Shown: piece by piece, positions 16,280-54,691 of the stretch | How positions within the stretch are numbered: the stretch's first letter is position 1 | Layout of the letters: every line of letters begins with the position of its first letter | DNA from: Tribonema minus | Lineage: Eukaryota; Sar; Xanthophyceae; Tribonematales; Tribonemataceae | Length of the DNA: 64,000 nucleotides | Assembly (NCBI GenBank): GCA_017506865.1 | Contig: JAFCMP010000112.1 | Coordinates: 868,001 to 932,000 of the forward strand | Reading direction: 5' to 3' | Made by a program: the position numbers and the translations under genes | The notes under the pieces: model-generated | Databases searched by the model: none | The model's input: only the letters and a program-made list of their open reading frames with translations | Told to the model about the DNA's origin: nothing

Positions 16280-17819
16280 TAGAAGGGAGCATGGTCACGG
16301 CGTGGCCATCGTGCGCGTGTGCCAGCTTTTCTTTTGCCAGATCGCTTTTTTTGGTCAACCGCCAGATTTGTGGGGGTACGGAGGGGAAGTCGGGGGGTGT
16401 CTGGCTGCCTTGGTGCCCAAGGCCAAGCATGTCATACCTGAATGAGATCAATAATTCTGGAAAATTGATGAAGGTGAATGGAACCAATCAAAACGCTTTG
16501 TGAAGCCTATGGAGCAAAACGGCGCAGCCGCTGCACTGCCTCACACATGCAGCGAAGCGCAATGGCGACATGCAGTACGCATCCAAAACAGACCAACATT
16601 TTGAACTTGCCCTGGCAGTCAGGCCAGCAGACGTGTGCGCAAATGCGAGTTGATGCGACAAGTGCCAATCACACGCTGGACCACAAGAGCGCTCAGTACA
16701 CAATCTCAATGATGTCATCAAGCATACGCATATGCTTAGAAACAGAACCGCACATGCACCACAACACCGCGCCTCATCATCATGTCATCGGTATTTCGTG
16801 CCGTGCTGTGTGCATGCAATGTGAGCATCCATCTGTCTGAGCGCTGGCGCAGCTGAGCCATTGCACTTTGTACAACATGCAGCCACCGAATCTCGGCCGT
16901 CAGGAGCTCAAAGATCAGGGCGCCTGTTGGCTTGCGCGTGTGTGTGTTGTCACAGCAGCGCAGCCAATGGCTGCAGCACGTGATCACCTCGGATGCCGCC
17001 AAGTGCAACGGCCATGTCGGCACATGTCATGCTGCACTGCCAGCTTGCCGGCTTTCCAATGAGGCGTGCGTGCTCAATCTCACTGAGGATTTCGAAGCGG
17101 TGCTGCGTGCAGCGATGGCACTGAGACACAGCCTGGCTGTTTTGTCGCACGTGCATCTCTGGTCCATTGGGGGTGTTCACGCCCCGTGTATGTCACCCAC
17201 TGCTGCCACATTGTCCCCGTCGGTGGTGGCCTTGCTAGTGTTTTGTAGTTCATGTGTCATGATATGACGCAGTTCAGCCGAGCGTGCAGCCTTGCAGCGC
17301 CAGCCTGGTGGCAACAGAGACAGTGGACGAGAGACAGATGAGTGCATGCTGTATACGAGACTCATACCTGTGTCAGAATGTCAGGCTGGCGCCCGACATC
17401 CTGCACATGTTCTGCCCATTGGTGCTTTTTGTACTTACTTCGGAAGCATATGTAATGCGGCAAGGATCGACAGACGCAAACACACGAGCTTTTGCTCGCT
17501 CCCTTTGGGGATTGCAGCAGCAGGCCACAGCGGTTGCCGCAGCATCATCTCAGTTCCATACTTGTAACTATGAAGCCAAGCGCGGTTTCTGTCATAGCCA
17601 GAAGATTACCACTCGCACAACAGGCGTTGCGGCACTTTTGAAAGGCGATACAGCTGCGCACTTGTCAACTCGCATTTCATGTTGGTCACAACAGTGGCCC
17701 GCATGGCAAGGTCACAGATCCCGCCTGCACAATACCGTCTCTGCTACTCTATGCCATACGCGATTACGCGCTCAGTTCACGTCTGACACAGAGGCGGACG
17801 ACAGACAACACCTCCTCAC
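16280..17819. other. Region between the LRR gene and the Sfi1-like gene
   Basis: AT-richer sequence. It should hold the 3' end of the LRR gene (minus strand) and the promoter of the Sfi1-like gene. A stretch near 17040-17120 on the minus strand could be a short LRR-gene exon but lacks a clear donor. I found no other supportable gene. Confidence 0.4.
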
Positions 17820-17996
17820 CTTCATGGCCAGATAGTTATCGGGCTGCTTGCGCAGGCGCTGCACCTCCAAGGCTACATGCCTCAAAGAGGTAAATGTCAC
17901 TTCAAGTTTGATGTTTGGCCTGTGTAGCAGTTGAGGACATGTCCTAACCTTCATGGCGAGGTAGTTGTCGGGGCGCTCGCGCAGCAGGCGCTGCAC
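17820..17996 (-). repeat. Duplicated exon 3' end with splice donor, LRR gene
   Basis: Two copies of an exon end lie about 130 bp apart on the minus strand. The upper ends VQRLLRERPDNYLAMK before GTTAGG; the lower ends VQRLRKQPDNYLAMK before GTGAGG. The lower copy is preceded by a usable AG and is exactly 45 nt in phase 0, so it could be a functional microexon. Confidence 0.75.
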
Positions 17997-19726
17997 CTCC
18001 GCGCGCGCCGCCGCCAGCTCGTCGCCGACCCTGAGCTTCTGCTCGCGCGCCGCCAGGGCCTCCAGCTCCAGCCGCGAGTTGAGCGCCTCTATGGCGTCCA
18101 TCTGCAGCGCAAGCGCATCGCAGCTTCTGCATCTTAGGCGCGAGAGTGTCACATCGTGAGGAGCGATAGGCGGTATGGCTGTGCGCAGCGCAAACGCAAA
18201 GGACTGCGGCGGCGATGGCGACGCCTGGCGCATACCTGCCGTCTTGCTCAAGCAGAGCATCACTTTTTCGACACCTTCCCTCACTGTTGCATTTGGTGAT
18301 CGTGCTCATGCACCCCTGTCACTCGCGAGCAAGGCGTTCACGGAGCACCAAATACTAGCGCTCGCCAGATATGCCCCACTGCAACGAGCTTGATGAGTTT
18401 GTGCAAAGAGGTGATACCATTGCGTGCATTGATTGTGCACTGCGCAACTTGCAGTACTGCAACACATTAAGAATGACACTGCTCATACTGCAGCGAGCAT
18501 GGGTGATAGCACATGCTGCTGTAACTCAGACGTCACAATCGAGGCACCAACAGCCTCTGCATGATCTTCAACTTCTGATGTCAACACCCTGCTCACCTCC
18601 ATTGCTTGTTGCGAGTAGAGCCCGCAAAGCCACTTCAATAGGGCGGTGTCACCTGTTGGAAGTGATCAGCGAACGTTTTGGGCGCACGGGTGTCAGTACA
18701 TACATCATGTGCAGATGTTCTGATGGCGTGATGGCTGCACGAGCTATTTGCCAGTTCTGCACAACCCATTTGTCTTTGCTCGCGCGCTTCGCACACCAAA
18801 TTGTGACACAGCACGCCCACTAATCTGCTGGAGTGCCTGGCAGACGCCTTTTCATCCCAACGCTCCAATCCCGCTGTCCAGCTGAACACAAGCCAAGCAC
18901 GGCATTCAGCACGAGAAAATTGCGCCTCACTTGTCCAGGGTTTCGTGCTCGGCGTCCATATCGCGAGCTGCACACTGCGCCAGGTCACCCCTGTGCGCAC
19001 ACGCTCCGGCGCGCTCACCTCTGAATGGCGCAGGCACCATGTCGAGGCGCGCGTTGCCCTGACAGTCCAGCTCCTCCAGGGACGGCATGGTGCCTATCTG
19101 GTGCGGCAGGTAGTTAAGATCGTTGTTGCCGAGCCGCACCACCCTCAGCCCTTGCAGGGACCCCAGGGCGGCGGGCACGCCGCGCAGCTTGTTCTCGCTC
19201 AGCACCAGGGTGTCCAGCAGGACGCATTGCGCCAAGGTCTGCGGTATCTCCGTCAGGCGGTTGCCGTTGGCCTTCAGGGTGCGCAGCCGCGTGCACTTGC
19301 CTATCTGCCAGGCGCAAGCGCAACCGCAAGTTTGCAGCTTCAGATTGTTCCTTTTGTGGCATTTGAAAGGAGCAGTTGACGAGCAAGACCACCGACTACA
19401 CACATATCTGCTCATGGGACTGATGCTCATCGACCACGCCTGCTGCGCTTGCATCGACTCAGTGGACGCCCTCACATGACGATTTCCGAGCTCACCTCTG
19501 CTGGCAGACTGGACAGCTTATTGCACGAGCAGTTGAGGTCCCGGAGCAGCGTCAGATGCCCCAGCTCTGGCGGCAGCCGCTCGATATTATTGAAGGCGAT
19601 GTTCAACACCAACAGCTCCTTGCTGAAGGTCCACAGCACGCTGTCCAGCTCTACCCATGAGCGGTGCGTCAGGTCCAGGCATCCCGCTTTGTCTGGATGC
19701 GGGATGAGTTCGTCGTATTCCTCCAT
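17820..19726 (-). CDS. Leucine-rich-repeat and coiled-coil protein, partly resolved
   Basis: Likely intracellular scaffold or signalling protein; no signal peptide is visible. Exon 1 (19726-19496, ATG at 19726, 77 codons, phase 0) contains an LRR block, LLVLNIAFNNIERLPPELG. Exon 2 (19304-19019) contains about four more repeats with the L-x-x-L-x-L-x-x-N-x-L pattern, including LRTLKANGNRLTEIPQTL and LVLSENKLRGVPAALG. It ends in phase 1. A coiled-coil exon (about 18100-17949) ends LLRERPDNYLAMK, and a 45-nt exon (17864-17820) ends LRKQPDNYLAMK. The coiled-coil exon frame does not follow directly from phase 1, so at least one exon between 19018 and 18120 is missing from my model. The 3' end is also unresolved and probably lies below 17820. 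The LRR part is secure; its link to the coiled-coil exons is inferred from strand and spacing. Confidence 0.6.
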
Positions 19727-24323: not shown

Positions 24324-27300
24324 ATGCCGGCTCCGGACGCACAGAAGCAGGCAATCTCTATAAAGGTGCCTGCCAAGGATCCAAAGAAGCCTGATGATGG
24401 TGGCAAACCCCTGGACAAAAAAGAGGAGCAGCCTCAGGTAAATCAGATCTCTCTCAGGCTGTGTACCTCGGTTGTTTCTTGGGGAACACGATTTTCTGTC
24501 TTCATTATACAGCTTTCATTGTGGAGAGTGGCTGTCTCATACTGCTGTCGTTATCAATTTGTTCATCAGGTGCATGCATTTGAAGTTGACAAGTGCTGCA
24601 GATGGAACGCGTGCTCAGGGCAGGCTCTTGTGACTCTTCGACTTCTGTGCGCTTGCATGCGCAGGATGAGAAAGCCACAAAGGGGAAGGAGAAGGGCAAG
24701 AGGGAGAAGAAGGTCGGGGAGCCAGAGGAGTTGAGCGAGGTACGCACTGCGTAGAGTCCGATCCACACAGCTCTTTGCAGCGCCACAGCTGCAGTCATGC
24801 ACTTAACAGCTTCCAGCTGGGAGATGCGGACCGGTTGAGGTGTTCAGGGCGTGTTGGCGCTGCGACAATTTGGCGCTGATTTGCTGAGCAGCTGCAAGTG
24901 CGCCTGCCGCACGTAGATGCCTGTACATCGGCCAAGTGCACTCTGCCTGACGGTAGCCCGCTTGCCTGCTGCCCCCACCTGATGCTCATCAGCGCAGCAA
25001 TGAATTGTTCAGTGGCTCAACTGCCAGCAACAGTGCATCCACACCCTGTGCTACAGCAATGTCAGTGCCATTGCTCCAATTGAAGTTCCAGTGCGTGCAT
25101 CAGTTCTGCTGGCATGTTCGCCATGAGGATGGAGGTGCCCCAACAATGGAGCCCGCAGTACCTAACGTAGTCTTTTCCGTTTCACGGTGTATGTACAATA
25201 CGGCGCGGCGGCGGAGCAGGAGGACCGGCTTCTGAAGGAGGGGCTGGAACTGGCGGTAACCCGGTCATCCGATACTGACCCGGAAATTCAGAAGGTGAGC
25301 CCCACGGCATTGAGTTGCTGGTGTCGCCAGTTAGAAAGATTACTGTTGTAATGTGCTGGCACTGGCAGTGCCCGAGCACTGTTTTATCCCCTGCGCAACA
25401 CAGATGCGATAGACATGGAGGTGGTTACATTGTGATTAGCGCAGGCAGATGCGCTGCTGTGCCTGCTGTACTGCCCTACTGATCTACCATTGTCTGGCAT
25501 GTCTGTGTGCGACAAATTGCACAGCTCTACCTGCAGCTGGGGCATTTAGTACCACTGGTGCTGCGCTGCAATTGGTGCTTCCTGAGGCAGCTGCGTGTGT
25601 TGAAACGCACTGCTACATGCCATGATGTGGGACCATGCTGTGGTCACTGCGTGCCGTACACACTTGGTCGGCGCGCAGCAGCATGAGATGCGTCAGAACG
25701 TCTACCATGCGCATGGCAATTGGCAACCCAGACGAGGAGTAGTCGCATGATAGTAAAACACTGTAGCTGCAACATATCAGCACCGCCATGGACTTTGGCT
25801 TCAAATGCCTTCTCCTTCTCCAACCGGCTCTGCACACTGTGAACTCCGCACTACTTGGTGTTCTTGCTGCTGCTCTGGGCATTACCTGCCATCGCTACAA
25901 ACACTCACCAGATGAGCGTGCTCGAAAACAACAAGCGCCGGCCTAGGTCTTGCGCAACACCGCACGCGTGTCCGGTTGTGACGCACCGCTGCGTGCCCCT
26001 GCGCAGCGCACGGTGAGCGACGCAGTAGTCACGCCACCGCTCGCTTGCCACCCGTCTTTGCCCGCTCTTCCAGCGAGTGCCTGAAAGTGCGAGCCCATGT
26101 GTGAACCCCCCGCCCCATCTGAAACTGAAACTCTCAGCCCCATCCCCCTCCACCCCCCCCCCCCCTCTCCCCCGCGTGCTCACCCCCCCCCCCCCGGCAG
26201 GCCGCGATCGCGCACCTCTCGCGCGAGATCCGCTCCGCGACCACATCCATGACGTCCGTGCCCAAGCCGCTCAAGTTCCTGCGGCCGCACTACGCGGCGC
26301 TCGTCGCCGCGTACGACGGCTGCGCGCCCGGCGACAACCGCCGCGCGCTCGCCGACGTCCTGTCCATCATGGCCATGACGACGGCCGCGCCGGGGGCGCG
26401 CGACAGGTGCGAGTGTGAATGGATGCGGCAGCGCTCAGGGCTGTTGCGACGCAGCGCAGTAAGGCGCTGCGCGCGCTCGGTGGGATGACGCAGCGCGCGC
26501 GGCTGCTGCTGCTGCTGCAGCAGCGGCAGCGGCGGCGGCGCGCGGGGCTACTGCTGCTGCTGCTGCAGCGGCAGCGGCGGCGGCGGCAGCAGCGGCGGCG
26601 GCGGCTGCGGCGGCGGTGGCGGTGTCATGTGTGCGGTCTGCGACGGAGACTGCAGCGCCGCTTGGATCCCTGTTGCAGAGTCACAGATGTGGTGGTTGGG
26701 CGTTGCCGTCAGCGCACTGTTGAGTAGAGGCACTTCTGCGCTCCTGCATGGCGCTGCTTGCAAGCCCCGACAGTCATGCGATGTGATGATCAAAACGGTC
26801 CCCGCGTCGGTCGACACAGCACCAGCGTCAACCAGTCAGATTGTCTGGGGTCAGAGTGGCACTTACACACTGTGGTTAGAGCTGGGGCAGCCACACCGGC
26901 AACGTGACACTTACGCTGTATCCCATTCATCATGGCCGCTTGTTGACGACCGCCGGTCCCTCGCAGCCTGCGGTACAAGCTGGCGGGCAACGTGAAGGAG
27001 CTGGGGCAGTGGGGGCACGAGTTTCTGCGCACGCTGGCAGGGCAGATAGGCGAGGAGTACTCGGCGCGCATTACAGGCGAGGCGCCGGCGGGGGGGGAAG
27101 GAGAGGCCAAGCCGGAGGACGAGGTGGGGAGTCAGCTTATGTGCTAACATAATGCTTCAACATTACGTACTTGAAGTATATACATGCAGAGCATGCGTGA
27201 TGTATACACATGCGAGCAGCACATGCCGCTCATATCTGCGGGGCAGATAGGCGCGAGGAGTACTCAGCACGCATCACAGGGGTGGCGGAGGCGGGGGGCG

Positions 27301-30300
27301 GAAGGAGAAGCCAAGCCGGAGGACGAGGTCTTGCCCCCTAAAACTTCAACTTTCAAACTTCAAGTATAGAAGTTCACACCACGCTTGGAGCAATGTATAC
27401 AAATGTGAGCAGCATCTGCCGCTGACATGTACTATACTGTCAAATTTGTATATACATGGGCATATTGGAGCTTGCATCATGCATTCTGAAGGTGAGAAAC
27501 TGTAGGAATCTGTAGAACAGGTAGTCAGATAAGTATGAGTGTGTACAGTCATGTGGCACTATGGCCGTGGTTGCTGATGTGGAAAAACTTCACGAAGCCA
27601 GCGCATAAGTGATGCAGGCATACATACATGTCACGTGAAATGACTACGAGGCGGGCACAGACACACAGTCATTACACTCCTTGGGGGTTGCCGAAGAATT
27701 TGTCTTTGTGTGCATGCGGCCTCAACATTTGCGTCAGGTGTGCATTTGGCGGCCGCAGGGAGCCGTGCGGGGGTTGGCGACAAGATTCAATGCTGTGTGT
27801 TTCTTCTTCATCCATCCGGGGTCAATATTGTGGTAGCGCCACAGACATAAGAACGCTGTCCTTGCGGTGTCAGGAGCTGGCACCGCTGCCGTTGAACATC
27901 ATGGCGGGGCTGCGGAGACCTGCTTTACTGGCCACAGCTGCCCTTGTGTAGCTGCAGGGATGCGTATAAACTTGAAGGCGCGCTCCACTGATGCACAATG
28001 GCCCAATGTCACCCTGAAGTGTGATTCTGGCACCATTACCCATGGACACGCATCCCATCTTAATGACGAGGGCGACGACGCATGAGTTGTATGTAGTATG
28101 CACGAACCTTGTTGCAGCTGTCACTGTTGGGCAGCATTTCGTGAGGAGGTCGTATATACGTACAGATGACGTGTACAGAAAGATAACATGGGTGTATATG
28201 AAGCGTGCTCGTGCTCAGGAGCGAGGACGAGCTGTGATGACGCGCCGAACATTTGTGAAGTAACGGCGTGCACATAATGGGGGGCTGATCCGCAGCAGAA
28301 ATGTGCCAACCTGTCGTTCAGCAAGATAAAGATCTGTGTTCATCACAGCGTCCTAGTAGGCCGGACATAATGCACACGGCAGTGCTTGCGATCGCCAGGT
28401 TGCAGCGCCATCATCGCACACTTTGGTGTGCACGCGTGCACCCGCTCTGCAGCCCGGCGTGCGTGGCTGTGTCTGCATGAGACCGGCATGCAGCGCCGTT
28501 AGGCAATGAGAATGCGTTTGCTGAAATACACCACACCTTTGAAAACTCCTAGTAGGCGCATTGGTCATGGTTCGTCGGCACCATGACACGACACAACGCC
28601 ATTCTTGCATACTAGCTGTCTGATGGAAGTAGATTCACTTATAAGAGGTGGAGCGTGGTGTGTCGAATGTCTCGAGAAACACTCTCGTGCAAACGTTGGC
28701 GTGGGGTTAGGGTTAGGTGTATGCCCACAATGACGCCATTCGCTGCTAGAACAGGACTTCTGGGTTTGTTTGTCATTTGGTACATACTGCAGATATGCTA
28801 TTGTTGGCAAACTCCCGCCTGTGCAAGATTGTAGCGGTATTGCACGATGAGCCTGATGAACATGTGGTCATTAGGGGAACGGTGGACGGACATGCTCGCC
28901 AGTGGTCATCCCATCCGTCCCCAACTGCCATGCTCTTCCAGTGCAGCCCACATGTCGACTGAGCCCTGCTGCCGCCGGGGTTGTCGTCATTGCATCATAC
29001 ACAAACTGTCGGGGACGTGCCATCGATCGATCGAGAGGCCATGAGCGTGGCAAGCCCTTTAACACCCCCAGATATGCTGGTCTGAGCACAAGTGATTGAA
29101 TCCCCCCCCCTTCCCCCTCCCCATCCCCCTCCCCCTCCCCCCACACCTCCAGATATATTGGTCTGAGCACAAAGTATTGAATGCTCCTCCCCCCTCCCCA
29201 ACACCTCCAGATATGTTGGTCTGAGCATCAAATGATTGAAACTACCCCCCCCCCCCTGCCCCTTGCCCCCCTCCCCCATCCGCAGGAGCCGGACGTGTCC
29301 GACCTCATGGTCCTCGTCGACGAGATCGTGCCGTTCCACCTGCAGCACAATGCGGAGGCGGAGGCGGTGGACCTGCTGGTGGAGGTGCAGCGCCTGCCCA
29401 AGCTGCTCGAGCTGCCGTTCGTCGACGACAAGAACTACGAGCGCGTGTGCCTGTACCTGCTGCGCATGGCGGACTACATGGTGAGCTGAGCGCTGCTGCT
29501 CGTAAGCGCGGCCGCACGGGGGTGGATGCACGGTATACGGAGTCCACGCGGCGAGGTGGTCGCTGTACATGTCGGCACTGACTGGGGCACGGCAACTGCG
29601 CGACGTCGTGATTGATGGTAGATATGCCCCATGTCATGTTAATCTCTGTTCAGCGATGTGACTGCGCATGGCGGACTCCATGGTGGGCCTGAGCGCTGCT
29701 GCTCGTGAGCGCGTCGGCGCGATGGTCGACGCAAGTTCACGCAGCGTAGTGGTCGCTGTCCGCGTCGGCGCTGACTGGGGCACGGGAACTGCGCGGCGCT
29801 ATGCTTGATGAGAACCGCCCGATGTCATGTATATTTGCGTTTGGTGAACGACATGCGTCAGCGAGCTCACGTGTACTGTTGTTTCCGCTGACGCAGGTGA
29901 TGCCGTCTCATACGTTAATTGCGAAGGGTGTGGGTGTGTAGGGGGTGGGGGAATCAACTCAGGTCGTGTGGATTGCATGCTGCATTATAATCCGCTGGCC
30001 ACTCGAGCAGCCGATGACAACATACTGGTGCGATACAGATCGTGCGCTGCAGCGGGCGGCAATGTTGGGGCAGGCCTGCGTGCTGTCGCCGTCAGCTGCT
30101 GCGCTGCAACGCCGCGCAGCAGCGCACCAATCAAGCGCCAGCAAACACACAGACAAGCCCACGCTCAGCGCAGTATGAATGCCGCTGCAGACGCGCGCGC
30201 GCGGGCAACAAGCCCCCATCCACAACGCCTCCGCTGCCGCCGTGATGCCCCCCTGCTCTACTCACCGCTGCCGCCGCCGCCGCCGCTGCCGCCGCCCGCA

Positions 30301-33300
30301 GTCCGACCCGGACGACCTGGCGTCCATGCTGGAGGTCGCGCACCGCCTGTACCGCCTGCGCGGGCGCTACGTGGAGGCGCTGCGCGTGGCGCTGCGCCTC
30401 GACCGCCAGGACGAGATCGCGGAGCTCTTTGCAGAGTGCGAGGACGGCGCCGTGCGCAAGCAGATGGCGCTGCTGCTCGGCAGGTGCGCGCGCGCGCATG
30501 GGGATAGCGATACAAGCACAGGACGCAGTGATACTGTCGCTACGCGTAGGATTGAGCGTGGTGTTGTACTGAAGCAGATGGTCCTGCTGCTCGGCACGTG
30601 TGCGCGCGCGGGGGCGTAGCGACTTAATTGGGGACCGGGCATAGAATGGGTGCTTTTCACACCCCGTGCTGACAGGCAGCCGACGAGTGTCAGGCGCAGC
30701 TGCAGTAGAGGCGATAGCTGCTAGGCCGTAGGCAAGCAGAAAGCGACGCTGCTCGGCAGGTGCGCATGCGCGCGCGGGCGCGTAACGATGCGCTTACAGG
30801 AAGGACGCGGTAGTACTGTCGCTGCGGGTAGAATCAAGCGTGACATCATAAAAGTTGGTGAGTCAGTTGAGACCATTTGTGGCACCCCGCATATCTCAGC
30901 CTGCCTCGCAGCGACGGGTTCGCCTGCACGCTGCCGCTGACTCGCAGAGGTCGCAGCGGAACGCGACACAAAGCACCTTACGCAAACCTCACTGCCATCG
31001 CGTCAACCCTGTGCGCACGCGCTGCGACCAGATGCTGCTGCAGCGTTGGCGTGCGCGCGGCTTGTGTCGCATCGCTGCCGCCGCCGCCGCCGCTGCCGTG
31101 GCGTGCTTGTGCGCCACCCGCGATACGCGCTTGCCGCCTGTGATTACGCTTCATGCCCCCTGCTCCGCCCCTGCTGCCAGGCACCGGAGCTCGTACACAC
31201 ACCCGGAGGACGACGCGATCAACGAGCTGGTGGGCAACGCGGCGCTGAGCGACCACTTCCTTGCGCTCGCGCGTGACCTCGACGTCATGGAGGCCAAGAC
31301 CCCCGAGGCGAGTGCCGGCGACGGCCGATGATCGCTGCTGCCACGCACTCACCGCCATAGCAGCGTGCGTAGACTGTCGCGCGCGCGTCAGAGTGGCGGG
31401 CCGCAAATGATACATTTGGCGTGTGGCGGCGGCGGTAGTAGCCTCCGGCGGTCGCGGCGACGCGTCCGTGGCGCGAGGCGAGGCGGTGCTGCACAGCCGA
31501 CAGAGAGGGCTCTCGTTACGGTCCATGATACTCTGCCGCATGCAGTGCTCGCATATGCCGGTGCGCGTGCGTCGCGTTGGCAGCGTGCACATGGCGCTGC
31601 CGCGGTGGTCGCGTACGGCGGCGGCCGCTGGCGCTTGCGCCGATGCAGCGCGTGCCCGCCATGCGCTGCCGCGGAGCGCTGTGTAGTGCTGCCGTGCTGA
31701 GCCGCGCTGTCCGTGGTGCATGCAAGTCATAGGTAGCGCTGCTGCTGCACTGCGTTTGACGCTCGCGCGTCGCATGCGCCATGTGTGCGGCGCCGCCGCA
31801 AGGCCCTGAGACACTCTTGCGATCGTTCCAGCCAGATCGCCCACCGCGTTTGCATGCGCTGCACGCCGTGAGTTCTGGGCCCCGCGCCGCCGCCGCTGCT
31901 GGTGCAGTCAGCGCCGCCGCAGTCACTGGTGACGACAGCACTTGTGCGACGCGTACGCACATGACAGCAAATGCACCACCACCGCAATGTACTGCGCCGC
32001 TACGCGTGCCCCACATTTATCGGGTGCGGCATGGCCGTGTCGATGCACGTCGCGTCACTGCGCTGCTGCCATCAGTGCAGTCAGCGCCGCTGCAGTCGCC
32101 CAACGACGCATTCGCCGTGTCGTGCGCCTCGGCGTGGCGCTCGTGCTGCAGAGGTATTGCTCACTCTGTAGCTGTATGTGCCCCTAACTTTAACTTCATC
32201 TGGTGACGCGCTGCGCGCAGGACATCTACAAGAGCCACCTGGCGGACAGCGCGGGGTTCAGCCGGCGACGCGACGCCGGCGCGCCGCAGGTGAGCGCTGC
32301 CACTGCTCAAAGCGAGCGCCGCCGTGGCGCATGCTGGCCTCAGGGGCACTGCCCGGCAGAAAGGCCGGCAGACGTGTAGATGCGCGTCGTAGCATCTTTG
32401 GGGCGGTGCGGCACGGCTTCACTGCCCAGTCTGAGTGCTTGGGTACTTGAGGTATCGCTTGCACTGGGCTTGAGGTTATAATCAGCGCTCGCACGTGCGT
32501 GGTGACGCGGCGGCGAGATTTGCGAAGGCGCCCCGGCGCCGCCCCTGGGGGCATTGCGGCGCAGCGCCGCAGCTGCACGATACACATTCACAAGGCAGCA
32601 TCATCAGCGCCGCACTGCCGCCCTGCCTGCCGTGAGCGCGGCGCGGCGTGAGCTTGCCCTGCACTGCGATCAGAGAGTCAGGCGCCGCGGTGTTGCGGGC
32701 TTGTGCGCGAAGCGGCGCTGCTCTGACGCCGCCGCTGCGTGCGCGCTGACGACACTTTCGCTGCGTGTGCGCTGCTTCTGCCCTGCGTGAGAGCGCAGGT
32801 GGACAGCGCGCGCGCGAACCTGGCCAGCACGTTCGTCAACGCGTTCGTCAACGCCGGCTACGGACAGGTGGGCATTGCGATTGATGAGCGCTGCTTGCGG
32901 CGCCATACTTGAAACTAGGCGACCATGGACCAAATTCATGGAACTTGATGTATTTGTCAGTGTTCATGAATGAATGTACGTGCGAGGAGGGAGACCTTAC
33001 GTTGTCAGTATTCATGAATGAGTGTACGTGTGAGAGGAGGGAGACCTTACGAAGCGGGTTAGCTTGCAGTGTATGGGGCCGGAATGGTATCCTCCAGCCG
33101 CAGCATTCGCAGTGCTCGCCACGCGCCGCCGCATGTGGCAGCACACTCGTTGAAGCGTGTAGGGTCATGAAGTCAACAAAATGCCGCAGACCCTGTTTGC
33201 CAAAGCTGTTGCTGTGCTTCGCAGCAAGCGTTGAGCACGCGTGCAGCGTGCTGTGTATACATGACAGGCGGGTGTGCACATCGCGCCTCCGCTGCACCGT

Positions 33301-36300
33301 ATTTGTTGCTCAGGCCAGTGCGATGTCGCATGCGGGCCCGAGCCACAGACATGGCCTTTGATTCTCAGTCCAGCACCCTGTCACAAGCGGCTGCGCATCA
33401 CGGTCAGACTTCAAGTAGGTGTTCTGTACTTGTGGTCTTCTGTATTGCGAACCTCCCGCTGTCTGCGATGGTGCATGACCGACTGCGCGCTGCCAATATT
33501 GCTGATCACACCGGCACGCAGCAAGCGCCGTCTGGACAGTCTCTTTGACCGAAGGTCGATGCCCACATCATGACCGCAGCAAGAGATGGAGACAAGCCGC
33601 ACAAAATGTATGTATCTGCCTCGCACTTCGTTTTCGTTACAATACAGCGTTGATGTTCATCAAGTGACTCTCCTCCCCTCGCAGGACTCGCTCATCACGC
33701 TCAGCATGTACCGCGTCTGCCTCACTTACTTCACTGCCGCGCTGATGTACAACCTCGATTTCCGCCGGGTGACTCCCCCCCCCTCCCCCGCGACAGGACT
33801 CGCTCATCACGCCCGAGGGCAACAGCTGGCTGTACAAGAACAAGGACCACGGCATGCTGAGCGCTGCCGCGTCCATCGGCATGGTGCTGCTGTGGAACGT
33901 CGAGGAGGGCCTCACCCAGATCGACAAGTTCCTATACAGCGGCGAGGACCACATCAGGTTTGATATAGAAGTAATACATGAGTGGGAGGCACTTGCGGCT
34001 AACCACTCCTTGTCACCTAGAGCTCCACGATCTTTTGATTCGGTTCCACAATGCTACTTGGATGACGCGAGCGCGCGTACCCGCTTCGTGACGGTACGCC
34101 GCTGCTCGTGTTCACATGCGCTCTCCTCACACAATCACGCCTCACCCAGACCGACACGTTTCTGTACAGCGGCGAGGACCACATCAGGCATCTCGCAGCG
34201 CCGCACGCACCATCACCGCGCCGCTGCGTGCCTTTCGCTCGTGCTCACCGCATGCCCCCCCCCCCCCCCCCACTGCTGTGCACTGACGCGCCGCAGGGCT
34301 GGCGCGGCGCTCGCGGTCGGCATCGTCAGCAGCGGCGTGCGCAACGAGTCGGACCCCGCGCTCGCGCTGCTTGGCGAGCACGCCGAGGGCGCCAACGCCG
34401 CCATGCGCGTCGCGGCGGCGTGCGGCCTCGGCATTGCGTACGCTGGCGCACGCCGCACAGACGTCATGGAGCTCCTCGTGCCGCTCGTCGCTAACACCGA
34501 CACGGCGGACATGGCGGAGGTGCGGAGTAGGAGTAGGGTTAGGGCTAGGGTTAGGGTTAGGATTGGAGGTAAGGGCGTTGGGTGGAGTAGGGTCAGATGC
34601 CGGCGCGCGCCCCGCTGACGCCATGAAGCTCCTCGTGCCGCTCGTCGCCAACACGGACACGGCGGACATGGCGGAGGTGCGCATCAGGGTTAGGGTTAGG
34701 GTTGGAGGTACGGCTTGGGTGAAGTTTGACAGGGGGGCTGGGGATTAGGTCGGTAGCGCAGCATGCGGGGTAGGGCTATGGGAGGCAAGTAGGCTCACAG
34801 GGGCGGTGTCAGGGTGAGGGTTAGGATTGGTTCCTCGCTCGTGGCGGGCGGGCGGAGAGCAGTACGGTGCAACGCTGTGGCAAGTTTTGTTGGCGAAACA
34901 GCGTGAGTATCAGTTGGCAGAGGTGCAGGTTAAGGTCAGGGTCAGGGGTGGAGGCAGGGCTTGGGTGGGGTGTGAGTGGAGTGCGGATTAGCTGGTCGGC
35001 ACGCTGGGTTCTCGACTGCAGCATAGCATGTGTGCACACGGCAGAGGCGTGCAGCGGTAGGTGGCCCTATGGCGAGCGCATGGTTTGCTGGGTTAGGGCT
35101 AGGGCTGTGTTCGCGTGGGTCGGTGACTGCAGCACCGTGTGCGATGAAGCACAATGCGCACCGGCAGCACCGACGCCATCGCGCCGCTCATGCTGCACGT
35201 TACGACCACTGACACCGTGAGCCTCGCTGCCCGCCCCGTCGGCATCGCCGCAGGGTTGAAGTCAGAGTCATTTTGGTGCACCCCTGTGATGGCGAGTCGC
35301 AGGCAAAGCCCCTCTTGTGACGCGCCTGCCGCAAGCCGGCATCAACGCGCGCTCCGTCTTCGCCGGCACGTGTGATGAGTAGGTCGGCTCTTCCGCATGT
35401 TCAAGTTCTTGAATAGTCAGACCAGCTCAGTAGAAGACCAACTTACGCACAAACCTCAACTGCGCTGCAGGTGGGCCTCGCCGCGCTCTCTCCCTGGGCC
35501 TCGTGTTCGCCGGCACGTGCGACGAGGAGTTCGGCTCGGCGCTCGCCTGCACAAGTGCAAGTTTGAATTGTGCAGTGCAGGCCGCTCACACACACACAAA
35601 CTTCAAATGTGACGCGCACACGCCGCAGGTGGGCCTCGCCGCGCTGTCCCTGGGCCTCGTCTTCGCCGGCACGTGCGACGAGGAGGTCGGCTCCGCCCTC
35701 GCGCAGCGCCTCATGGAGTCGACCGACACGGAGCTCGACCAGGGCATGGCGCGCTTCGTGAGCCTCGGGCTCGGCCTCCTCTTCCTCAACAAGCAGGAGA
35801 AGGCGGACGCCGTGCTGGAGGTCGTCAAGACGATCGCGCATCCCATCGGGCGCTTCACAGAGGTCGTCCTCGAGAGCTGCGCGTACGCGGCCACGGGCAA
35901 CGTGCTCAGGGTACAGAAGGTGAGACAGAGCGCCGTCGGCGCAGGTTTAGATGGTGCTGACGGGCCAGAGACGGCAGGATAGGGCGGGGTCGGTGTAGGG
36001 TTCGGGTTAGGGTTAGGGTTAGGCCAAAGACAGGCTTGCCGTCAATGCGTTTAGGCTGCGCGTACCGGCGGCGGGCAACGTGCTCAGGGTGCAGAAGGTG
36101 AGCGCGCGGGCTCGGGTGTTACTGACGGCTGGCTCAGAGGCGGCTGTGTATGGCAGGTCTGGCATAAGGTTAGTTCAGTGTTGGTGTTTAGACTGGGCCA
36201 AAGGCACGATTGCTGTCAATGTGTGTTTGAGCTGCGTGTACGCGGCGACGGGCAACGTGCTCAGGGTGCAGAAGGTGAGGGGGGCGGCTGCGCGGGCTGG

Positions 36301-39300
36301 GGTGGTACGCGCGCGGATCAGGGCACGAAGGTGCTTGGTAGGGTCACGGAGAGGATTGCTGTAAACTGTGGCTGGGCTGCTACGCGCATGCAGATCGGCT
36401 GGCGACGGGCACCGTGTTCAGGGTCCAGAAGGTAAGAGAGCGCGCGGGCTGGGGTGGCACTGACGGTCAGAGACGGCACGATGGGGTGGATTTTGTGTTG
36501 CGGTAGGGTTAAGGTGAGGTTGAGGCCGAAGACACGATTGCTGTCGCTGTAGTTGAGCTGCGCGTACGCGGCAACGGGCAATGTGCTCAGGGTCCAGAAG
36601 GTGAGGGGGGCAGCTGCGCCGGCTGGGGTGGCACTGACAGGTCAACTCAGATTTAGGGTGAGGGTTAGGGTTAGGCCAAAGACAGGATCGCTGTCGCTCT
36701 GTTTGAGCTGCGCGTATGCGGCGCTGGGGCAGTGTGCTCAAGGTGCAGAAGGTGGTGGCGATGCCGACGGCTCGGCTCAGGGTGCAGAAGGCGAGTATAC
36801 ACAACAGGCTCAGGACGGCATTTCTGTAAGCTCGTCAGGCTGCGCTGGGAAGCAGTCGGCGCGATGCGCAACGTCCAGCGACCGCGTGGCCCCAACACTG
36901 GCGGCCGCGATTGCGCTCGGCTGCGCGCTCGCAACAAGCGAAGGACGCGAAACGACAGACATCTCGTGTGAAGGAGGTTACGTCGTTTCACATGCATCCG
37001 CTGAGCGTTGTTGCTGTGCGCGCTCAGATGCTAGCACGAGGCTGCGCGACAATGGGCCTCGCATCATGCGAGAGCTGTGCAACCGCCACCAGCGTTGTGC
37101 TGTTTGACACACCCGCAGTTACGCAGCTGCAGCGATGGGCGCCGTTTATGACTTAACCGTGCGCACAATCACCCCAAGTATACAGCACACAAAAGTCTTT
37201 TTGACTGGTGGATACGGTGGTACTGTTTGACTCGTGGCCAATTGCTGCAGCAGCGGCGACCGCGGTTATTGGTGGGAGGCACTTGCGGCTAACCATCCCT
37301 TGTCACCTAGAGCTCTACGATCTTTTGATTCGTTTTCATACAGCACAGCGGCCCAACATGCAAAGATCAGCAGCAGGGTTTGTGAATTGATGCTGAATTT
37401 AGTCTATTGGCCATTCCTGTTTCCTTGCAAACTCGTGTGTCCTGCATTGCCACCTTCTGACTTCTGCGGGACAACTGCTAAGTTGATACAGCGCGCCATC
37501 ACCGTCTGTGCTGCACGCAGAGCAGCGCAGGCTGAGTTGAAAATCTGCAGAGTACGAGTGTACCGCTGCCTTGTATTTGTTGCTGCACCGCAACGCACCA
37601 CACCGGTCTGGTGGCTTACCACTGCTGCCCTCTGGTCACTGCCGCAGATGCTGCACCTGTGCGCGGAACACCTGGACGAGAAGGCGGACTATCAGGCCGC
37701 CGCAGTACTAGGTACGCTGCGCTGTAATCGTCACGTACCCTCGTTGCGCATGCCTGGCAGCCTTTGGCCGGGCAGCACCGGTACTGCTGCCATGCTGCGT
37801 ACGCTGCACTCCGATGCATGGCTTTCTGCACGCGCTTGGTAGCGTTTGTCTGCATCGCGACTAGAGTATGATGTTTGCAACTTCTGCATTGCCTACTTGG
37901 CACAGATGGCACCGGCGCGCGCAGCGTGCTGCTTGCGAGCACCGCACAGTTTACGCACCCGTGCAGCGGCTTAATACATGCAGCATGTGTCATCAGTGGC
38001 CCGCCACATGCAGGCGGCAGCAACGGCTCGCGAGGGCAAAACGGTCACGTGGCGCCCCTTCATGTGCACTGACCCCCCCCCCCCTCCTTTGCAACCCCTC
38101 CTCCCCCCCCCGGGCAGGCATCGCGCTCATCGCCATGGGCGAGGACGTCGGCACGGACATGGCGCTGCGCGCGTTTGACCACCTGCTGCACTACGGCGGC
38201 CTGCCGATACGGCGCGCCGTGCCGCTCGCGCTCGCGCTCATGCACGTGGGCAACCCCGACTACGGCGTCGTGGACCAGCTGTCGCGCCTCACGCACGACG
38301 CCGACACGGAGGTCGCGCAGAACGTGAGTCGGGCGGCGGCGTGAACTGTGCTCGTTGAAGTGTAGCCGGGCCGTTTGAGGCATGATTGTGCGAAGCCTAG
38401 TTTGATTCATGAAGCTTGGTGACTTGAGCTGTCGCGCCTCACGCACGACGCCGACACGGAGGTCGCGCAGAACGTGAGTCGGGCGGCGGCGTGAACCATG
38501 CTCGTTGCAGTTTAGCCGGGCAGATTTAGTGGGGCGTGCTGATGTGAAGGCGGCGGCGGCCGGAGCTGTGCGTGTTGGGTTTAAGCCGAGCCGTTTGGGC
38601 GTCATCATAGTGAAGCTTCACGAAGCTTGGTAACTTGTACTGTGACAGACCTTGAAGCGCGCGCGCAATGTCAGCAGCATTATGAACTGTCGTCAACAGA
38701 AACCATATTTGGCGTGTACGCATTACACAGTGTTGTTGAGAGCTATGTGCTCGTTGTCGCCGCCTTGCTGCAAGCCATCGGGATGTCGAACTACATCAAC
38801 GCTCGCAGTCTTCCGATCATGTTTTATTGAGCACTTACCTCGAAGTATGACGCGCAGCGCGCAATTTCTCAGCTGTGACGTCAGCAATACACGTCGCGTG
38901 TGGCAGCGCCAGCCGCATGTTCGCCCAGCGAGCACCGCGGCGTCTGCAGGACATTCTATCAGGGCTCACCGACGATGACTTGTGACCATGTTGCGTGTCA
39001 TTTTGCGCTGCGAGTTCTTCTGCGACACTACGCAACAATTGCTCCCTGCCCCCTGACCAGTGCGCAGCAGCGCCACTCGCGCACAAAGCCCCTGCGCTGT
39101 CGACGCGCGAGCCGTGCGACGCTCGCCTTGATCACTAAAAAACGTGATGCTTCTACTTTGCACAGCATTAAGGTAGTTGAGCAGCGTGCAAGTGGACTGT
39201 CTTGGTTCCAGCTGTACTGTTTCCAGACTCATGCTGAAACATCCTCCCCGCTCATCGCTGCGGCCGTGCGCGCAGGCGATCATGGCGCTCGGCCTCATCG

Positions 39301-40279
39301 CGGCGGGCACCAACAACAGCCGCGTCGCGCAGCTGCTGCGCCAGCTGTCCGAGTTCTACTCGCGCGAGGCGGGGCCGCTCTTTGTCACGCGCATCGCGCA
39401 GGGCCTCAACCACCTCGGCAAGGGGCTCATGACGCTGCACCCGTTCCACAGCGACCGCCTCGTGCTGTCGCCGGTGGCGCTCGGGGGGCTGCTCGCGGTG
39501 GTCTTCGCGTGCCTCGACGCCAAGAACACCATCCTGGACAAGGTGCGTTGGGGGGAAGGGGGGGGACCCGGGGGGGGATGCGCGCGCTCTGGCGTGTCTG
39601 GAGTCCTCTGTGCGTGTGGGGGGGTTTGTCTGGTGGTGAAGTGCGCGGGAGGAAGGGGAGGTTGTCACCATTGTGCCGCACAGCGCTGCCGGCTCTTTCA
39701 CTCTGTATTCCCTGTCGTCAACGGTTGGCGCAGCTGTGAAGTGGAGCCGGGGCTGTCTGCACGAATGGGGATGCAGCTCACGGCAGGTTTTGAATGCTTG
39801 GAGTGTCTAGTTGCCCAGCCAACACAAACGATGTATCCATGCAGTCAGTCGCCGTGACCCTCGCGCCCCATGCCCACAGGTCAGACAATGTTCTTGCCTC
39901 GAACCTCTATGTGCTGCTGATCGTGCTCACCCCTTGCCCCCCCCCCTCCCCCCCCCCTCCGCAGCACCACTACATCCTGTACTTCCTGGCGTGCGCGATG
40001 CAGCCGCGCATGCTCATGGCGGTCGACGAGGACGTCAAGCCGCTCAGCGTCACCGTGCGCGTCGGCCAGGCCGTCGAGACGGTCGGCCAGGCGGGGCGCC
40101 CCAAGACCATCACCGGGTTCCAGACGCACACCACGCCCGTGCTGCTCGGCGTGCGGGACCGCGCGGAGCTCGCGACGAACGAGTACATGGCGCTCGGCGG
40201 CGTGCTCGAGGGCGTCGTCGTGCTGCGGCGCAACCCCGACGCGGACGCCGCGGCGGCGGCGGCGGAGGGCAGCACTTAG
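24324..40279 (+). CDS. RPN1: 26S proteasome regulatory subunit RPN1 (PSMD2/S2)
   Basis: Non-ATPase base subunit of the 26S proteasome; it docks ubiquitin receptors and shuttle factors. Seventeen exons: 24324-24437, 24665-24739, 25220-25294, 26201-26406, 26967-27123, 29286-29480, 30302-30483, 31181-31307, 32221-32289, 32799-32867, 33797-33957, 34297-34519, 35629-35919, 37648-37711, 38118-38323, 39276-39542, 39965-40279. They total 2796 nt (931 aa), the usual size, and all phases close. Family blocks appear in order: [67 protein letters not shown], the PC repeats ([79 protein letters not shown]) and [18 protein letters not shown] near the C-terminus. The N-terminus is Lys/Glu-rich. The intron after exon 8 appears to use a GC donor. 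Exon ends are repeatedly duplicated inside the introns; these copies are listed separately and left out of the protein. Confidence 0.95.
27033..27331 (+). repeat. Duplicated end of RPN1 exon 5
   Basis: The last ~90 nt of exon 5 (27033-27123) recur at about 27238-27331 in the following intron. The copy shares GGGCAGATAGGC, GAGGAGTACTC and AAGCCGGAGGACGAGGT, with a single-base insertion that breaks the frame. Flanking intron sequence (ACTTGAAGTATA, GAGCAGCA, GCCGCT) recurs too, giving a unit of about 205 bp. Confidence 0.85.
28704..28718 (+). repeat. Telomere-like TTAGGG motif in RPN1 intron 5
   Basis: Two units, GGGTTAGGGTTAGG, isolated in the intron before exon 6. Confidence 0.7.
29065..29284 (+). 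repeat. Three tandem copies upstream of the RPN1 exon 6 acceptor
   Basis: Three imperfect copies of about 65-85 bp contain CAGATAT, TTGGTCTGAGCA (first copy CTGGTCTGAGCA) and TTGAA, each followed by a C-rich stretch. The last C-rich stretch is the polypyrimidine tract of the exon 6 acceptor. Confidence 0.85.
29455..29815 (+). repeat. Duplicated end of RPN1 exon 6 with donor
   Basis: The exon end and donor CTGCGCATGGCGGACTACAT, GGTGAGC recur at about 29665-29692 as ACTGCGCATGGCGGACTCCAT, GGTGGGC. The following intron (GAGCGCTGCTGCTCGT, GGTGGTCGCTGT, CTGACTGGGGCACGG) is also repeated. The period is about 205 bp. Confidence 0.85.
30455..30835 (+). repeat. Three copies of the RPN1 exon 7 end and donor
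   Basis: The functional copy ends at 30483 (AAGCAGATGGCGCTGCTGCT, CGGCAG before GTGCGCG). Decayed copies lie near 30571-30610 (AAGCAGATGGTCCTGCTGCT) and 30733-30770 (AAGCAGAAAGCGACGCTGCT). Each is followed by related intron sequence including ACTGTCGCT. Confidence 0.85.
32953..33055 (+). repeat. Two-copy ~50-bp tandem repeat in RPN1 intron 10
   Basis: Both copies contain TTCATGAATGA, TGTACGTG and GAGGAGGGAGACCTTACG. No exon sequence is included. Confidence 0.85.
33672..33815 (+). repeat. Duplicated acceptor and start of RPN1 exon 11
   Basis: CAGGACTCGCTCATCACGC occurs at about 33683-33701 and again at the used exon start (33797). The upstream copy diverges after about 18 nt. It keeps a C/T-rich tract and AG, so it is a potential decoy acceptor. 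Confidence 0.8.
33912..34191 (+). repeat. Duplicated end of RPN1 exon 11
   Basis: The end of exon 11, from CTCACCCAGATCGACAAG to the donor CAGGTT at 33957, recurs at about 34140-34191 (CTCACCCAGACCGACACG through GACCACATCAGG). The copy is followed by GC rather than GT, so its donor may be dead. Confidence 0.85.
33981..34047 (+). repeat. Dispersed repeat, copy C
   Basis: GTGGGAGGCACTTGCGGCTA, then ACC, CTTGTCACCTAGAGCTC and ACGATCTTTTGATTCG. It is close to the copy at 37264 and lies in RPN1 intron 11, between the exon 11 donor and its duplicate. Confidence 0.8.
34460..34705 (+). repeat. Duplicated end of RPN1 exon 12 with telomere-like arrays
   Basis: The exon 12 end (to 34519) recurs at about 34600-34678 with the donor GAGGTGCG kept in both. 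Each copy is followed by a TTAGGG-type array, at 34527-34566 and 34686-34704. The telomere-like sequence is therefore part of the duplicated unit. A much more degenerate copy may lie at 35150-35215. Confidence 0.85.
35320..35700 (+). repeat. Copies of the RPN1 exon 13 start
   Basis: The used acceptor is at 35628. A close copy at about 35467-35545 contains CAGGTGGGCCTCGCCGCGCT and TTCGCCGGCACGTGCGACGA with a two-base shift. A weaker copy at about 35330-35385 contains TCTTCGCCGGCACGTG and then an in-frame TGA. Confidence 0.85.
35875..36793 (+). repeat. Array of copies of the RPN1 exon 13 end and donor
   Basis: After the functional end of exon 13 (35919), the segment encoding [14 protein letters not shown] and its donor recurs with ends near 36097, 36274, 36431, 36600 and 36750, and a short fragment ends near 36790. 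Spacing is about 178, 177, 157, 169, 150 and 40 bp. Most keep CAGAAGGT at the donor. Intron units between them share GGCAACGTGCTCAGGGT, and two contain TTAGGG arrays (36003-36024 and 36653-36675). None has an obvious acceptor that keeps the reading frame. Confidence 0.9.
37264..37337 (+). repeat. Dispersed repeat, copy B
   Basis: Begins GGTTATTGGTGGGAGGCACT, then CTTGTCACCTAGAGCTC and GATCTTTTGATTCG. It lies in RPN1 intron 13 and links copies A and C. Confidence 0.8.
38278..38580 (+). repeat. Duplicated end of RPN1 exon 15 with donor
   Basis: About 70 nt spanning the exon end and donor (38278-38346) recur essentially unchanged at 38428-38496, period 150 bp, donor AACGTGAGTC intact in both. 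A third, intron-only part follows at about 38510-38630. The high identity suggests this is one of the youngest duplications in the window. Confidence 0.92.
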
Positions 40280-54000: not shown

Positions 54001-54691
54001 GGGCTTAACTATTGCTGATGACGTGACGGCCGCGCGCTTGTGCGCGGGCGGACTTTGGGCAGCGTCGCTATCAGGCGCAGCATTGGCTTTCCTGCTTGCG
54101 CACTGCGACAGCCAGGTGGCATAGCAACAGGGGGCCCTGTACTTGTGTGGTGTCAAGGAGACACGAGAGCCAGCACACCTCAACGCAGGACAGCGCCTGC
54201 CACTGCGGTGCTGCTGCACACGCTGTAACCTGCTCTACACGCTCCCAGCAAGCTCCTGATGTCCAGTGCCCCGAAAAAGCTGCACGCTAACGCGCCGCCA
54301 CCCACATGCCGCGTGCCGCCCGCGCCGCCGCTACCTCTCATAACCGCATGGCGCTGCAGCCTCTGTCAGCATATACTTCAATGCAAGCACTACTTCAAGT
54401 GGTGGCAGACCCAATCAGCGCATGTCATTGTACTTTGAAGTACGCACCAGTGCCCCGCAAACCTCGCACGCTAACACGCTGCCACCCACATGCCGCATGC
54501 CGCAGCTGCCGGCGCCATCGCCGACCACAACCGCCGCGCCGGGCACGATGGTCGACATCGACCTGGCGACGCCGGCGCCCAGCAGCGGCACCACCGCCGC
54601 CGGCAAGCGCTTCAGCCTGGTGGACTTTGACAGCAGCGACGTGCGCGGCGGCGGCGGGCGCAAGGGCGCGCCCCTCGGCGCTAACGTATGA
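48015..54691 (+). CDS. Five-transmembrane protein with two large loops, prominin-like topology
   Basis: Function unknown; probable plasma-membrane protein. Ten exons: 48015-48247, 48507-48637, 48992-49064, 49630-49802, 50376-50505, 51322-51524, 52095-52199, 52977-53123, 53670-53843, 54506-54691; phases consistent, about 518 aa. The 5' end is unresolved: the frame is open back to 47716, with ATGs near 47755 and 47923. Hydrophobic segments: TM1 VGIAALLLFLLPIVYWVL, TM2 FLFWFAWLVVAVGTGFTAYG, TM3 in exon 5 (FVALCAMFLLCFGVLV), TM4 in exon 6 (ALAVTAVLVVLLGWVAAG), TM5 in exon 9 (MVLGSVLLFSGLVFLVLLW). The TM2-TM3 and TM4-TM5 loops are Ala/Thr-rich and helical; the second has Cys residues (FCQDP, LTCTGTN, SCETANS, STCQD) that could pair outside the cell. 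This matches prominins and a plant five-TM family. No catalytic motif is visible. Confidence 0.65.
49511..49534 (-). repeat. Telomere-like CCCTAA array in intron 3, five-TM gene
   Basis: CCCTAACCCTAACCCTAA, three units then a degenerate one, about 95 bp before the exon 4 acceptor. Confidence 0.8.
50890..51345 (+). repeat. Three copies of the acceptor region of five-TM exon 6
   Basis: Units around 50890-50950, 51110-51162 and 51281-51345 share TGCGTCGCG, CCCGAACC, a CGCGCAGG acceptor and then AAGGGCGCGGAG or a variant. Only the last joins in frame to exon 6. The two upstream copies have GCAAGG instead of GTAAGG after the AG. Intron text between them (TTCTACATGTATTGGCTTAC versus TTCTGCAGCCATTGGTTCTC) is also related. 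Confidence 0.85.
52400..52502 (+). repeat. Minisatellite in intron 7, five-TM gene
   Basis: Four to five imperfect units of about 24-28 bp with the core GTACTCGGTGGCGT or GTACTCGGTAGCGT and purine-rich spacers. Confidence 0.8.
52565..52690 (+). repeat. Degenerate CAACGCTCAG repeat in intron 7, five-TM gene
   Basis: The word CAACGCTCAG or a close variant occurs four times between 52568 and 52689, separated by C-rich spacers. Confidence 0.7.
53850..53900 (+). repeat. Short tandem repeat after exon 9, five-TM gene
   Basis: ACTGAGTGTAGAGTGT repeated about three times, starting a few bases after the exon 9 donor. Confidence 0.85.
54256..54515 (+). repeat. Duplicated intron end before exon 10, five-TM gene
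   Basis: CCAGTGCCCCG, GCACGCTAAC, GCCACCCACATGCCGC and ATGCCGC-type sequence occur at about 54258-54330 and again at 54448-54515. In the second copy CCGCAG is the acceptor used for the last exon; the first copy has CCGCCC there and cannot serve as an acceptor. Confidence 0.85.

What the first reader, a model, noticed from the sequence alone, without database searches (positions are those of the whole stretch)
24324..40279. Exon-intron junctions of RPN1 are tandemly duplicated into its introns at seven exons
After exons 5, 6, 7, 11, 12, 13 and 15 the intron repeats the last 20-90 nt of the exon plus its donor and some intron, one to six times. Exons 11 and 13 also have duplicated acceptor-plus-exon starts upstream. 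Copies show graded decay, from identical over 70 nt (exon 15) to barely recognisable. Random gene duplication would not keep choosing splice junctions. Possible causes are repair of breaks at junctions (for example R-loop or nascent-RNA associated), replication slippage, or selection keeping spare splice sites. This is a plausible route for intron lengthening or intron creation in this lineage.
Basis: partly seen in the sequence, partly recalled or inferred. Interest (0 to 1): 0.9.

Follow-up and report, generated by a model that had tools for sequence, protein, structure and literature searches.

The report
Splice-junction duplications lengthen algal introns
In this alga many introns have grown because stretches of DNA spanning the border between exon and intron were copied side by side again and again; the extra copies look like unused, decaying leftovers, and nothing found so far fully explains why the copying favours splice borders.

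Summary
RPN1 (26S proteasome Rpn1/PSMD2; 17 exons, intact 931-aa frame) has tandem duplications spanning the donor at exons 5, 6, 7, 11, 12, 13 and 15 and the acceptor at exons 11 and 13. The same occurs in 8 of 10 chaperonin genes sampled from this genome. In 57 mapped introns, 33 of 39 arrays straddle a splice junction; uniform placement without exon-internal or exon-swallowing units predicts 10.2 (P about 1e-14). The bias survives removal of exon sequence and restriction to two-copy arrays (13 of 17 against 5.7). Copies decay like unselected DNA. Arrays are 47% of the introns that hold them and match their extra length. Chaperonin paralogues L044 and L045 have one and nine arrays.

Best reading: DNA-level tandem duplications of about 80-320 bp, tolerated because the outermost splice sites still work, then array growth by homology. 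Short ancestral introns may explain part of the bias; junction-targeted breakage stays open. Selection for spare sites is not supported.

The parts
24324..40279 (+). RPN1 (26S proteasome regulatory subunit Rpn1/PSMD2) coding span, 17 exons
   Evidence: Spliced frame of 2796 nt without internal stop; phmmer to PDB 8amz_Z E 1.5e-281
27037..27423 (+). donor-spanning tandem duplication of exon 5 end + donor + intron; period 201 nt, exon part 87 nt
   Evidence: 7 nt between the matched copies
29061..29277 (+). intron-only array, 9 nt from exon 6
29460..29830 (+). donor-spanning duplication at exon 6; period 202, exon part 21 nt
30449..30842 (+). donor-spanning array at exon 7; copies at offsets 114 and 276
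33675..33812 (+). acceptor-spanning duplication at exon 11 (offset 111); below the E 1e-6 cut-off used in the statistics
33909..34188 (+). donor-spanning duplication at exon 11; offset 230; the copy has GC where the exon has GT
34442..34991 (+). donor-spanning array at exon 12; period 157, telomere-like repeats in the intron part
35355..35702 (+). acceptor-spanning array at exon 13; offsets 158 and 303 to the exon
35874..36795 (+). donor-spanning array at exon 13; five copies plus one partial
38277..38643 (+). donor-spanning array at exon 15; first copy 93% (offset 150), a third stretch matches the intron part at 70% (offset 220)
17813..18000 (-). donor-type duplication in another gene (minus strand), offset 129; exon edge read by eye, no gene model
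50868..51348 (+). acceptor-type array upstream of an exon at about 51323; weak Tweety-like hit below the Pfam cut-off
   Evidence: acceptor read by eye
54263..54503 (+). array ending 2-3 nt before an apparent acceptor; offset 184
   Evidence: acceptor read by eye
56952..57165 (+). acceptor-type duplication at an apparent exon starting about 57144, upstream of a MIP (aquaporin) match; offset 110, 1 nt between copies
   Evidence: acceptor read by eye

Best explanation
Introns here grow by DNA-level tandem duplication of segments of about 80-320 bp that include a splice junction. SHOWN: the units are contiguous exon edge + splice site + intron, at donors and at acceptors, and head to tail wherever the match is longer than the period; the true exon edges of RPN1 still give an intact protein; copies decay as unselected DNA; arrays match the extra length of the introns that hold them; two-copy duplications are over-represented at junctions. 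INFERRED: (1) founders arise by repair of a staggered break or two nearby nicks on opposite strands, whose fill-in and end-joining duplicates the stretch between the nicks; (2) a duplication inside an exon is removed by selection, one across a junction is tolerated because the outermost authentic donor or acceptor is still used; (3) some introns were short (about 60-110 nt) when first hit, so that a unit longer than the intron had to straddle a junction; (4) existing arrays then gain copies by unequal exchange or slippage, so later growth stays at the junction; (5) copies decay and are pushed into the intron.
For: In 14 chaperonin arrays and at RPN1 exon 13 the aligned stretch is longer than the period, i.e. 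head to tail. 33 of 39 arrays straddle a junction, 10.2 expected; 20 donor and 13 acceptor junctions carry arrays, shortest period 79-323 nt, median 157 (offsets searched 50-400). Neutral decay: exon-to-copy mismatches 6.1, 3.8 and 12.1% at codon positions 1, 2 and 3, gaps 8 of 8 not multiples of 3. Arrays are 47% of the bases of the 30 introns with arrays; median length 828 against 473 nt for the 27 without, 402 after subtracting arrays. Short cores: in L045 intron 4, 62 nt lie between the last exon-end copy and the acceptor; in intron 6, 65 nt between the last donor copy and the first acceptor copy (read); RPN1 intron 11 less its duplication is 109 nt. Near-constant spacing (161-168 nt) of the copies in L045 intron 4. 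Unduplicated against duplicated state in paralogues: L048 against L049, L044 against L045. Staggered breaks and paired nicks giving tandem duplications: passages of PMC5730883 and PMC8355091.
Against: Two-copy duplications in introns longer than the unit still straddle a junction in 13 of 17 cases against 5.7 expected, so short-intron geometry does not explain everything unless those introns grew later by other means. The shortest array-free intron in the sample is 173 nt (L038; boundaries in the script), not 60. Of 14 events inspected with unshortened matches, only 5 have 1-22 nt between copies; in 9 the gap is 27-171 nt, which I ascribe to decay and later indels but did not prove. Heterogeneity between genes (no straddling array in L037, L038 or the ribophorin gene) is not explained. 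Breakpoints are blurred, so nick positions cannot be read off. No RNA evidence and no relative's genome.
Confidence: 0.6

Rival explanations
1. Junction-targeted breakage: splice junctions (or exon edges) are themselves recurrent break or nick sites, through transcription pausing, R-loops, co-transcriptional splicing or exon-edge chromatin, and each break gives a tandem duplication across the junction.
For: Two-copy arrays in introns longer than the unit: 13 of 17 straddle, 5.7 expected, P 2e-4; arrays with a pair at 88% identity or more, 12 of 12 against 2.9; intron-only sequence still shows arrays hugging intron ends, mean 48 nt against 191 expected, none of 20000 permutations; all 13 arrays found in the 64-kb window at E 1e-6 lie at or within 9 nt of a junction (run in 8-kb pieces; for four the junction was read by eye).
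Against: The junction lies inside the unit, not at its edge; in donor arrays exon parts are 21-119 nt of periods of 79-302 nt. Paralogues of one family differ strongly (L044 and L045). Telomere-like stretches, a possible break-repair mark, are not enriched within 150 nt of donors (4 of 19 against 2.0 expected, p 0.14). No R-loop or nick data.
Confidence: 0.3
2. Uniform tandem duplication plus removal of exon-internal events and a detection bias towards exon-anchored copies; no junction bias at all.
For: Exons are conserved, so exon-bearing copies stay recognisable longer (exon parts 10.4% mismatch, intron parts 18.0%). The identity classes are affected by this.
Against: Bias remains with exon sequence excluded and in two-copy arrays.
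Confidence: 0.05
3. Selection keeps the copies as spare or regulatory splice sites.
For: The donor dinucleotide is kept in 31 of 33 copies (29 GT and 2 GC copies of a GC donor).
Against: That retention is near the neutral expectation; gaps break the frame in 8 of 8 cases; the third-position excess fits constraint on the true exon only.
Confidence: 0.04
4. Assembly artefact or collapsed repeats.
For: No read depth available.
Against: Copies in RPN1 differ from the originals by 6-30% in aligned stretches, arrays recur in many genes on contigs of 0.4-2 Mb, and the coding frame of RPN1 is intact.
Confidence: 0.01

Closest known systems
[quoted passage not shown] Hellsten 2011; Ma, Lan and Niu 2016, potato RdRp)
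   Same: Tandem duplication inside a gene feeds intron sequence; in the potato case (passages of PMC4974935) the unit was an existing intron-exon stretch, and a further 83-bp tandem duplication lay in an intron.
   Different: The classical model duplicates an AGGT-bearing exonic segment and makes a new intron. Here the unit carries an existing junction, lengthens an existing intron, is often multi-copy, and recurs at many junctions of a gene.
Tandem duplications from staggered double-strand breaks or paired nicks (end-joining, Pol alpha-primase fill-in)
   Same: Tandem copies of a short stretch without clear microhomology by eye (passages of PMC5730883 and PMC8355091).
   Different: Those experiments used engineered nicks about 43-50 nt apart, and the passages I saw report no preference for splice junctions; units here are longer.
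Introner elements / stwintrons
   Same: Recurrent gain of intronic sequence in protist or fungal genomes.
   Different: Copies here match the gene's own exon edges. Whether array units also occur elsewhere in the genome was not settled (one search scored 40 of 2696 candidates). Nested excision untested. Abstract of the stwintron paper seen; introner features recalled.

Membership tests
[quoted passage not shown]
   Units contain exon end + existing donor + intron, or intron end + acceptor + exon start
[quoted passage not shown]
   One intron present in L045 and absent in L044; polarity unknown
Staggered-break / paired-nick tandem duplication | head-to-tail copies with little microhomology and short filler | tested here: inconclusive
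   Match longer than the period in 14 arrays; of 14 events with unshortened matches, 5 have 1-22 nt between copies and 9 have 27-171 nt; no clear microhomology by eye
Staggered-break / paired-nick tandem duplication | dependence on end-joining factors and nicks at unit ends | not testable with these tools
   Needs genetics or nick mapping
Introner elements | near-identical introns dispersed across many genes | tested here: inconclusive
   DNA search with window 33700-39600 gave self plus a 156-nt dispersed element, but only 40 of 2696 candidates were scored
Stwintrons | internal intron interrupts a splice element of an external intron | not testable with these tools
   No RNA data
Selected spare splice sites | copies more conserved than unselected sequence | tested here: not met
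   Codon-position pattern, frame-breaking gaps and donor loss fit neutral decay

The most novel reading that the evidence does not exclude
Splice junctions are mutational hotspots in this lineage: transcription- or splicing-coupled nicks at exon edges repeatedly give tandem duplications across junctions, on both sides of exons, so that roughly half the length of affected introns is made of the gene's own junction regions. Introns here grow out of their splice sites rather than from transposons.
Probability: 0.33. Interest if true: 0.88.

Novelty: new variant of a known kind. Interest (0 to 1): 0.72.

Why it matters
What makes introns long, and why they differ in length between related genes, is usually put down to transposons and slow indel drift. 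Here a large, still recognisable share of intron DNA comes from the gene's own splice junctions, with copies of different ages side by side. That makes intron lengthening open to dating and offers a natural test of whether splicing or transcription makes junctions break. It also gives the spliceosome an unusual task: arrays of near-identical decoy donors and acceptors a hundred or two nt from the real ones.

Tried and rejected
Name confusion: I first searched the genome for ribophorin I (PF04597, also called RPN1); it found a different gene on C12, which later served as a gene with no array.

Detection-bias and geometry-only explanations: tested and not enough alone.

Telomere-like inserts as a break mark at donors: not enriched (4 of 19 within 150 nt, p 0.14).

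Two arbitrary 10-kb regions: arrays overlapping coding-like sequence, L055 1 of 3 (P 0.64), L056 6 of 7 (P 0.064), not significant (at that score threshold 93% of RPN1 exon bases and 7% of intron bases are called). Pfam on L056 gave one sub-cut-off match.

A second haplotype of RPN1 to date copies: none among the 40 of 2696 candidates scored. Rfam on window 23000-41500: no match. 18S rRNA for naming the organism: not answered twice. Pfam on window 41-50 kb, plus strand: nothing. A table-only search with PF00004 gave 20 matches (19 of 203 candidates scored) and was not used further.

Literature: ten searches. No listed title or abstract opening describes junction-spanning tandem arrays across many introns. 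Lists were capped at 10-25 rows (for example 20 of 195), and the library lacks most subscription journals.

Rows dropped: two Pfam rows that are themselves exon-edge copies (L036 177-224, L043 242-278) were not counted as exons; L041 and L042 were left out of the placement tests because no intron there has both exons known, and so were arrays in unmapped introns (for example L036 3144-3736, L040 5405-5864 and 6093-6271); L046 354-472 was left out of the donor-copy count (no donor could be placed); CCT3 271-327 gave no copy and was left out; one search used 47 introns, one search used 57.

Full report
WHAT IS THERE. The span 24324-40279 is one gene, RPN1/PSMD2 of the 26S proteasome: 17 exons that join into 2796 nt with one terminal stop; residues 28-919 align in one stretch with the solved subunit (best 8amz_Z, E 1.5e-281). 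The window is part of contig C112 of an unnamed 158-Mb genome in 554 contigs. One light-harvesting exon searched against PDB matches fucoxanthin-type LHCs best, so I infer an alga with a red-lineage plastid; the species is not known.

THE OBSERVATION.

ANATOMY. Donor units run from inside an exon (21-119 nt) across the splice site into the intron; acceptor units run from the intron end into the next exon. In 14 chaperonin arrays and at RPN1 exon 13 the match is longer than the period, so copies sit head to tail. Of 16 events inspected at their ends, two had matches that I had shortened by hand (L036, L041); of the other 14, five have 1-22 nt between copies and nine 27-171 nt; no clear microhomology was seen by eye. 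The shortest period per junction is 79-323 nt, median 157; 20 donor and 13 acceptor junctions of the 57 introns carry arrays. The junction lies inside the unit, not at its edge.

BEYOND RPN1. I took Cpn60/TCP1 (PF00118) as an independent multi-exon family. The protein search itself shows exon edges repeated side by side, for example profile 155-224 then 177-224 on C5. DNA of ten such genes shows straddling arrays in eight: L036, L039, L040, L041/L042, L043, L044, L045 and L046; none in L037 (one intron-only array 12 nt from an exon) and none in L038. With RPN1 and the ribophorin gene (none) that is 9 of 12 multi-exon genes. Of eight LHC loci (two of them identical) one has an array, upstream of an exon. 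In the 64-kb window, searched in 8-kb pieces, all 13 arrays found at E 1e-6 and offset 50-400 lie at a junction or within 9 nt of one (for the four outside RPN1 the junction was read by eye).

IS THE JUNCTION BIAS REAL? Three tests. (i) Placement: 39 arrays in 57 introns (42,756 intron bp); 33 straddle a junction, 10.2 expected when the unit is placed uniformly but not inside an exon and not around a whole exon, P 1.4e-14; arrays with a pair at 88% identity or more, 12 of 12 against 2.9 (exon conservation favours straddling pairs here). Of the six others five touch or lie within 12 nt of an exon; one is 143 nt away. (ii) Introns alone, exon sequence excluded, 47 introns: 18 arrays, mean distance to an intron end 48 nt against 191 expected, none of 20000 permutations; 15 arrays, 48 against 187, when 20 nt more are cut from each end. 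(iii) Two-copy arrays only, to avoid counting growth of old arrays, with intron length reduced by the unit: 13 of 17 straddle, 5.7 expected, P 2e-4; one further case had an intron shorter than its unit. Against: the two arbitrary regions gave no significant link with coding-like sequence, and gene models there are lacking.

ARE THE COPIES USED OR KEPT? In 34 copies found at the 21 donor junctions examined, mismatches to the true exon are 6.1, 3.8 and 12.1% at codon positions 1, 2 and 3, as expected if the exon is constrained and the copy is not. All 8 gaps break the frame. Of 33 copies that reach the junction, 29 have GT, 3 GC (two of them copies of a GC donor) and 1 GG. Exon parts differ by 10.4%, intron parts by 18.0% (43 copies from 21 of 22 junctions). 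Copies were picked by exon similarity, so the exon-part rates are lower bounds. Nothing asks for selection.

CONSEQUENCE. The 30 introns with arrays have median length 828 nt, the 27 without 473 (p 3e-4); arrays are 13,323 of 28,297 bases, and the former shrink to a median of 402 when arrays are subtracted. Paralogue contrasts: plastid-type Cpn60 L044 (one array; introns 296-742 nt) against L045 (nine arrays; introns 645-2358 nt); L045 intron 4 holds four copies of a 120-nt exon-end stretch, 88-90% identical in protein to the L044 exon. In L045 intron 4 only 62 nt are left between the last exon-end copy and the acceptor, and in intron 6 65 nt between innermost donor and acceptor copies, which suggests short ancestral introns there. 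LHC paralogues on C1 and C79 are 90% identical over 773 aligned positions, but acceptor-side copies were found only in C1 (acceptor read by eye). The label plastid-type for L044 and L045 is from recalled sequence features.

MECHANISM. Best supported is DNA-level tandem duplication; staggered breaks or paired nicks are a known source (passages of PMC5730883 and PMC8355091). Exon-internal events would be purged, junction-spanning ones tolerated because the outer splice site still works. Short ancestral introns and homology-driven growth of existing arrays may account for part of the bias. Test (iii) leaves an excess that may mean breakage at junctions. I put 0.6 on the composite, 0.3 on junction-targeted breakage as the main cause.

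KNOWN KIND. Tandem genomic duplication is a recognised route of intron gain (passages of PMC3443670 and PMC4974935). Here it lengthens existing introns, across existing junctions, often in multi-copy arrays, at many junctions of a gene. I saw no report of this in the listings of ten searches of the held library, which are capped and lack most subscription journals.

Noticed in passing
window 37185-37340, truncated relative at about 33982-34042: A 156-nt dispersed element in intron 13: 39 other places at 95-98% identity among the 40 of 2696 candidates scored; other copies share a longer 5' part, SINE-like in my judgement.
   Followed up: partly
window introns, e.g. 34534-34561, 36004-36023; other loci: Telomere-like TTAGGG stretches inside introns, almost always in the sense orientation (19 clusters against 1 antisense in 56 introns; clusters in arrays are not independent).
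   Followed up: partly
introns of the genes sampled (56 introns): The 7-mers ACTTCAA and TTGAAGT are about 20 times more frequent in introns than a dinucleotide model predicts (36 and 39 against 1.7 and 2.0; some lie in arrays and are not independent). No explanation.
   Followed up: partly
window 31308: Exon 8 of RPN1 has a GC donor (GCGAGT), and exon 238-313 of L040 also appears to.
   Followed up: no
L045 8702-9346 against L044 6106-6609: An intron present in one chaperonin paralogue and absent in the other; in L045 585 of its 645 bases lie in exon-edge arrays. Gain or loss not decided.
   Followed up: partly
window 58164-58313: Match to major intrinsic protein (aquaporin), E 6.4e-11.
   Followed up: no
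L051 and L052: Two LHC loci on different contigs are identical over 3411 nt, so the assembly holds recent duplicates or haplotigs.
   Followed up: no
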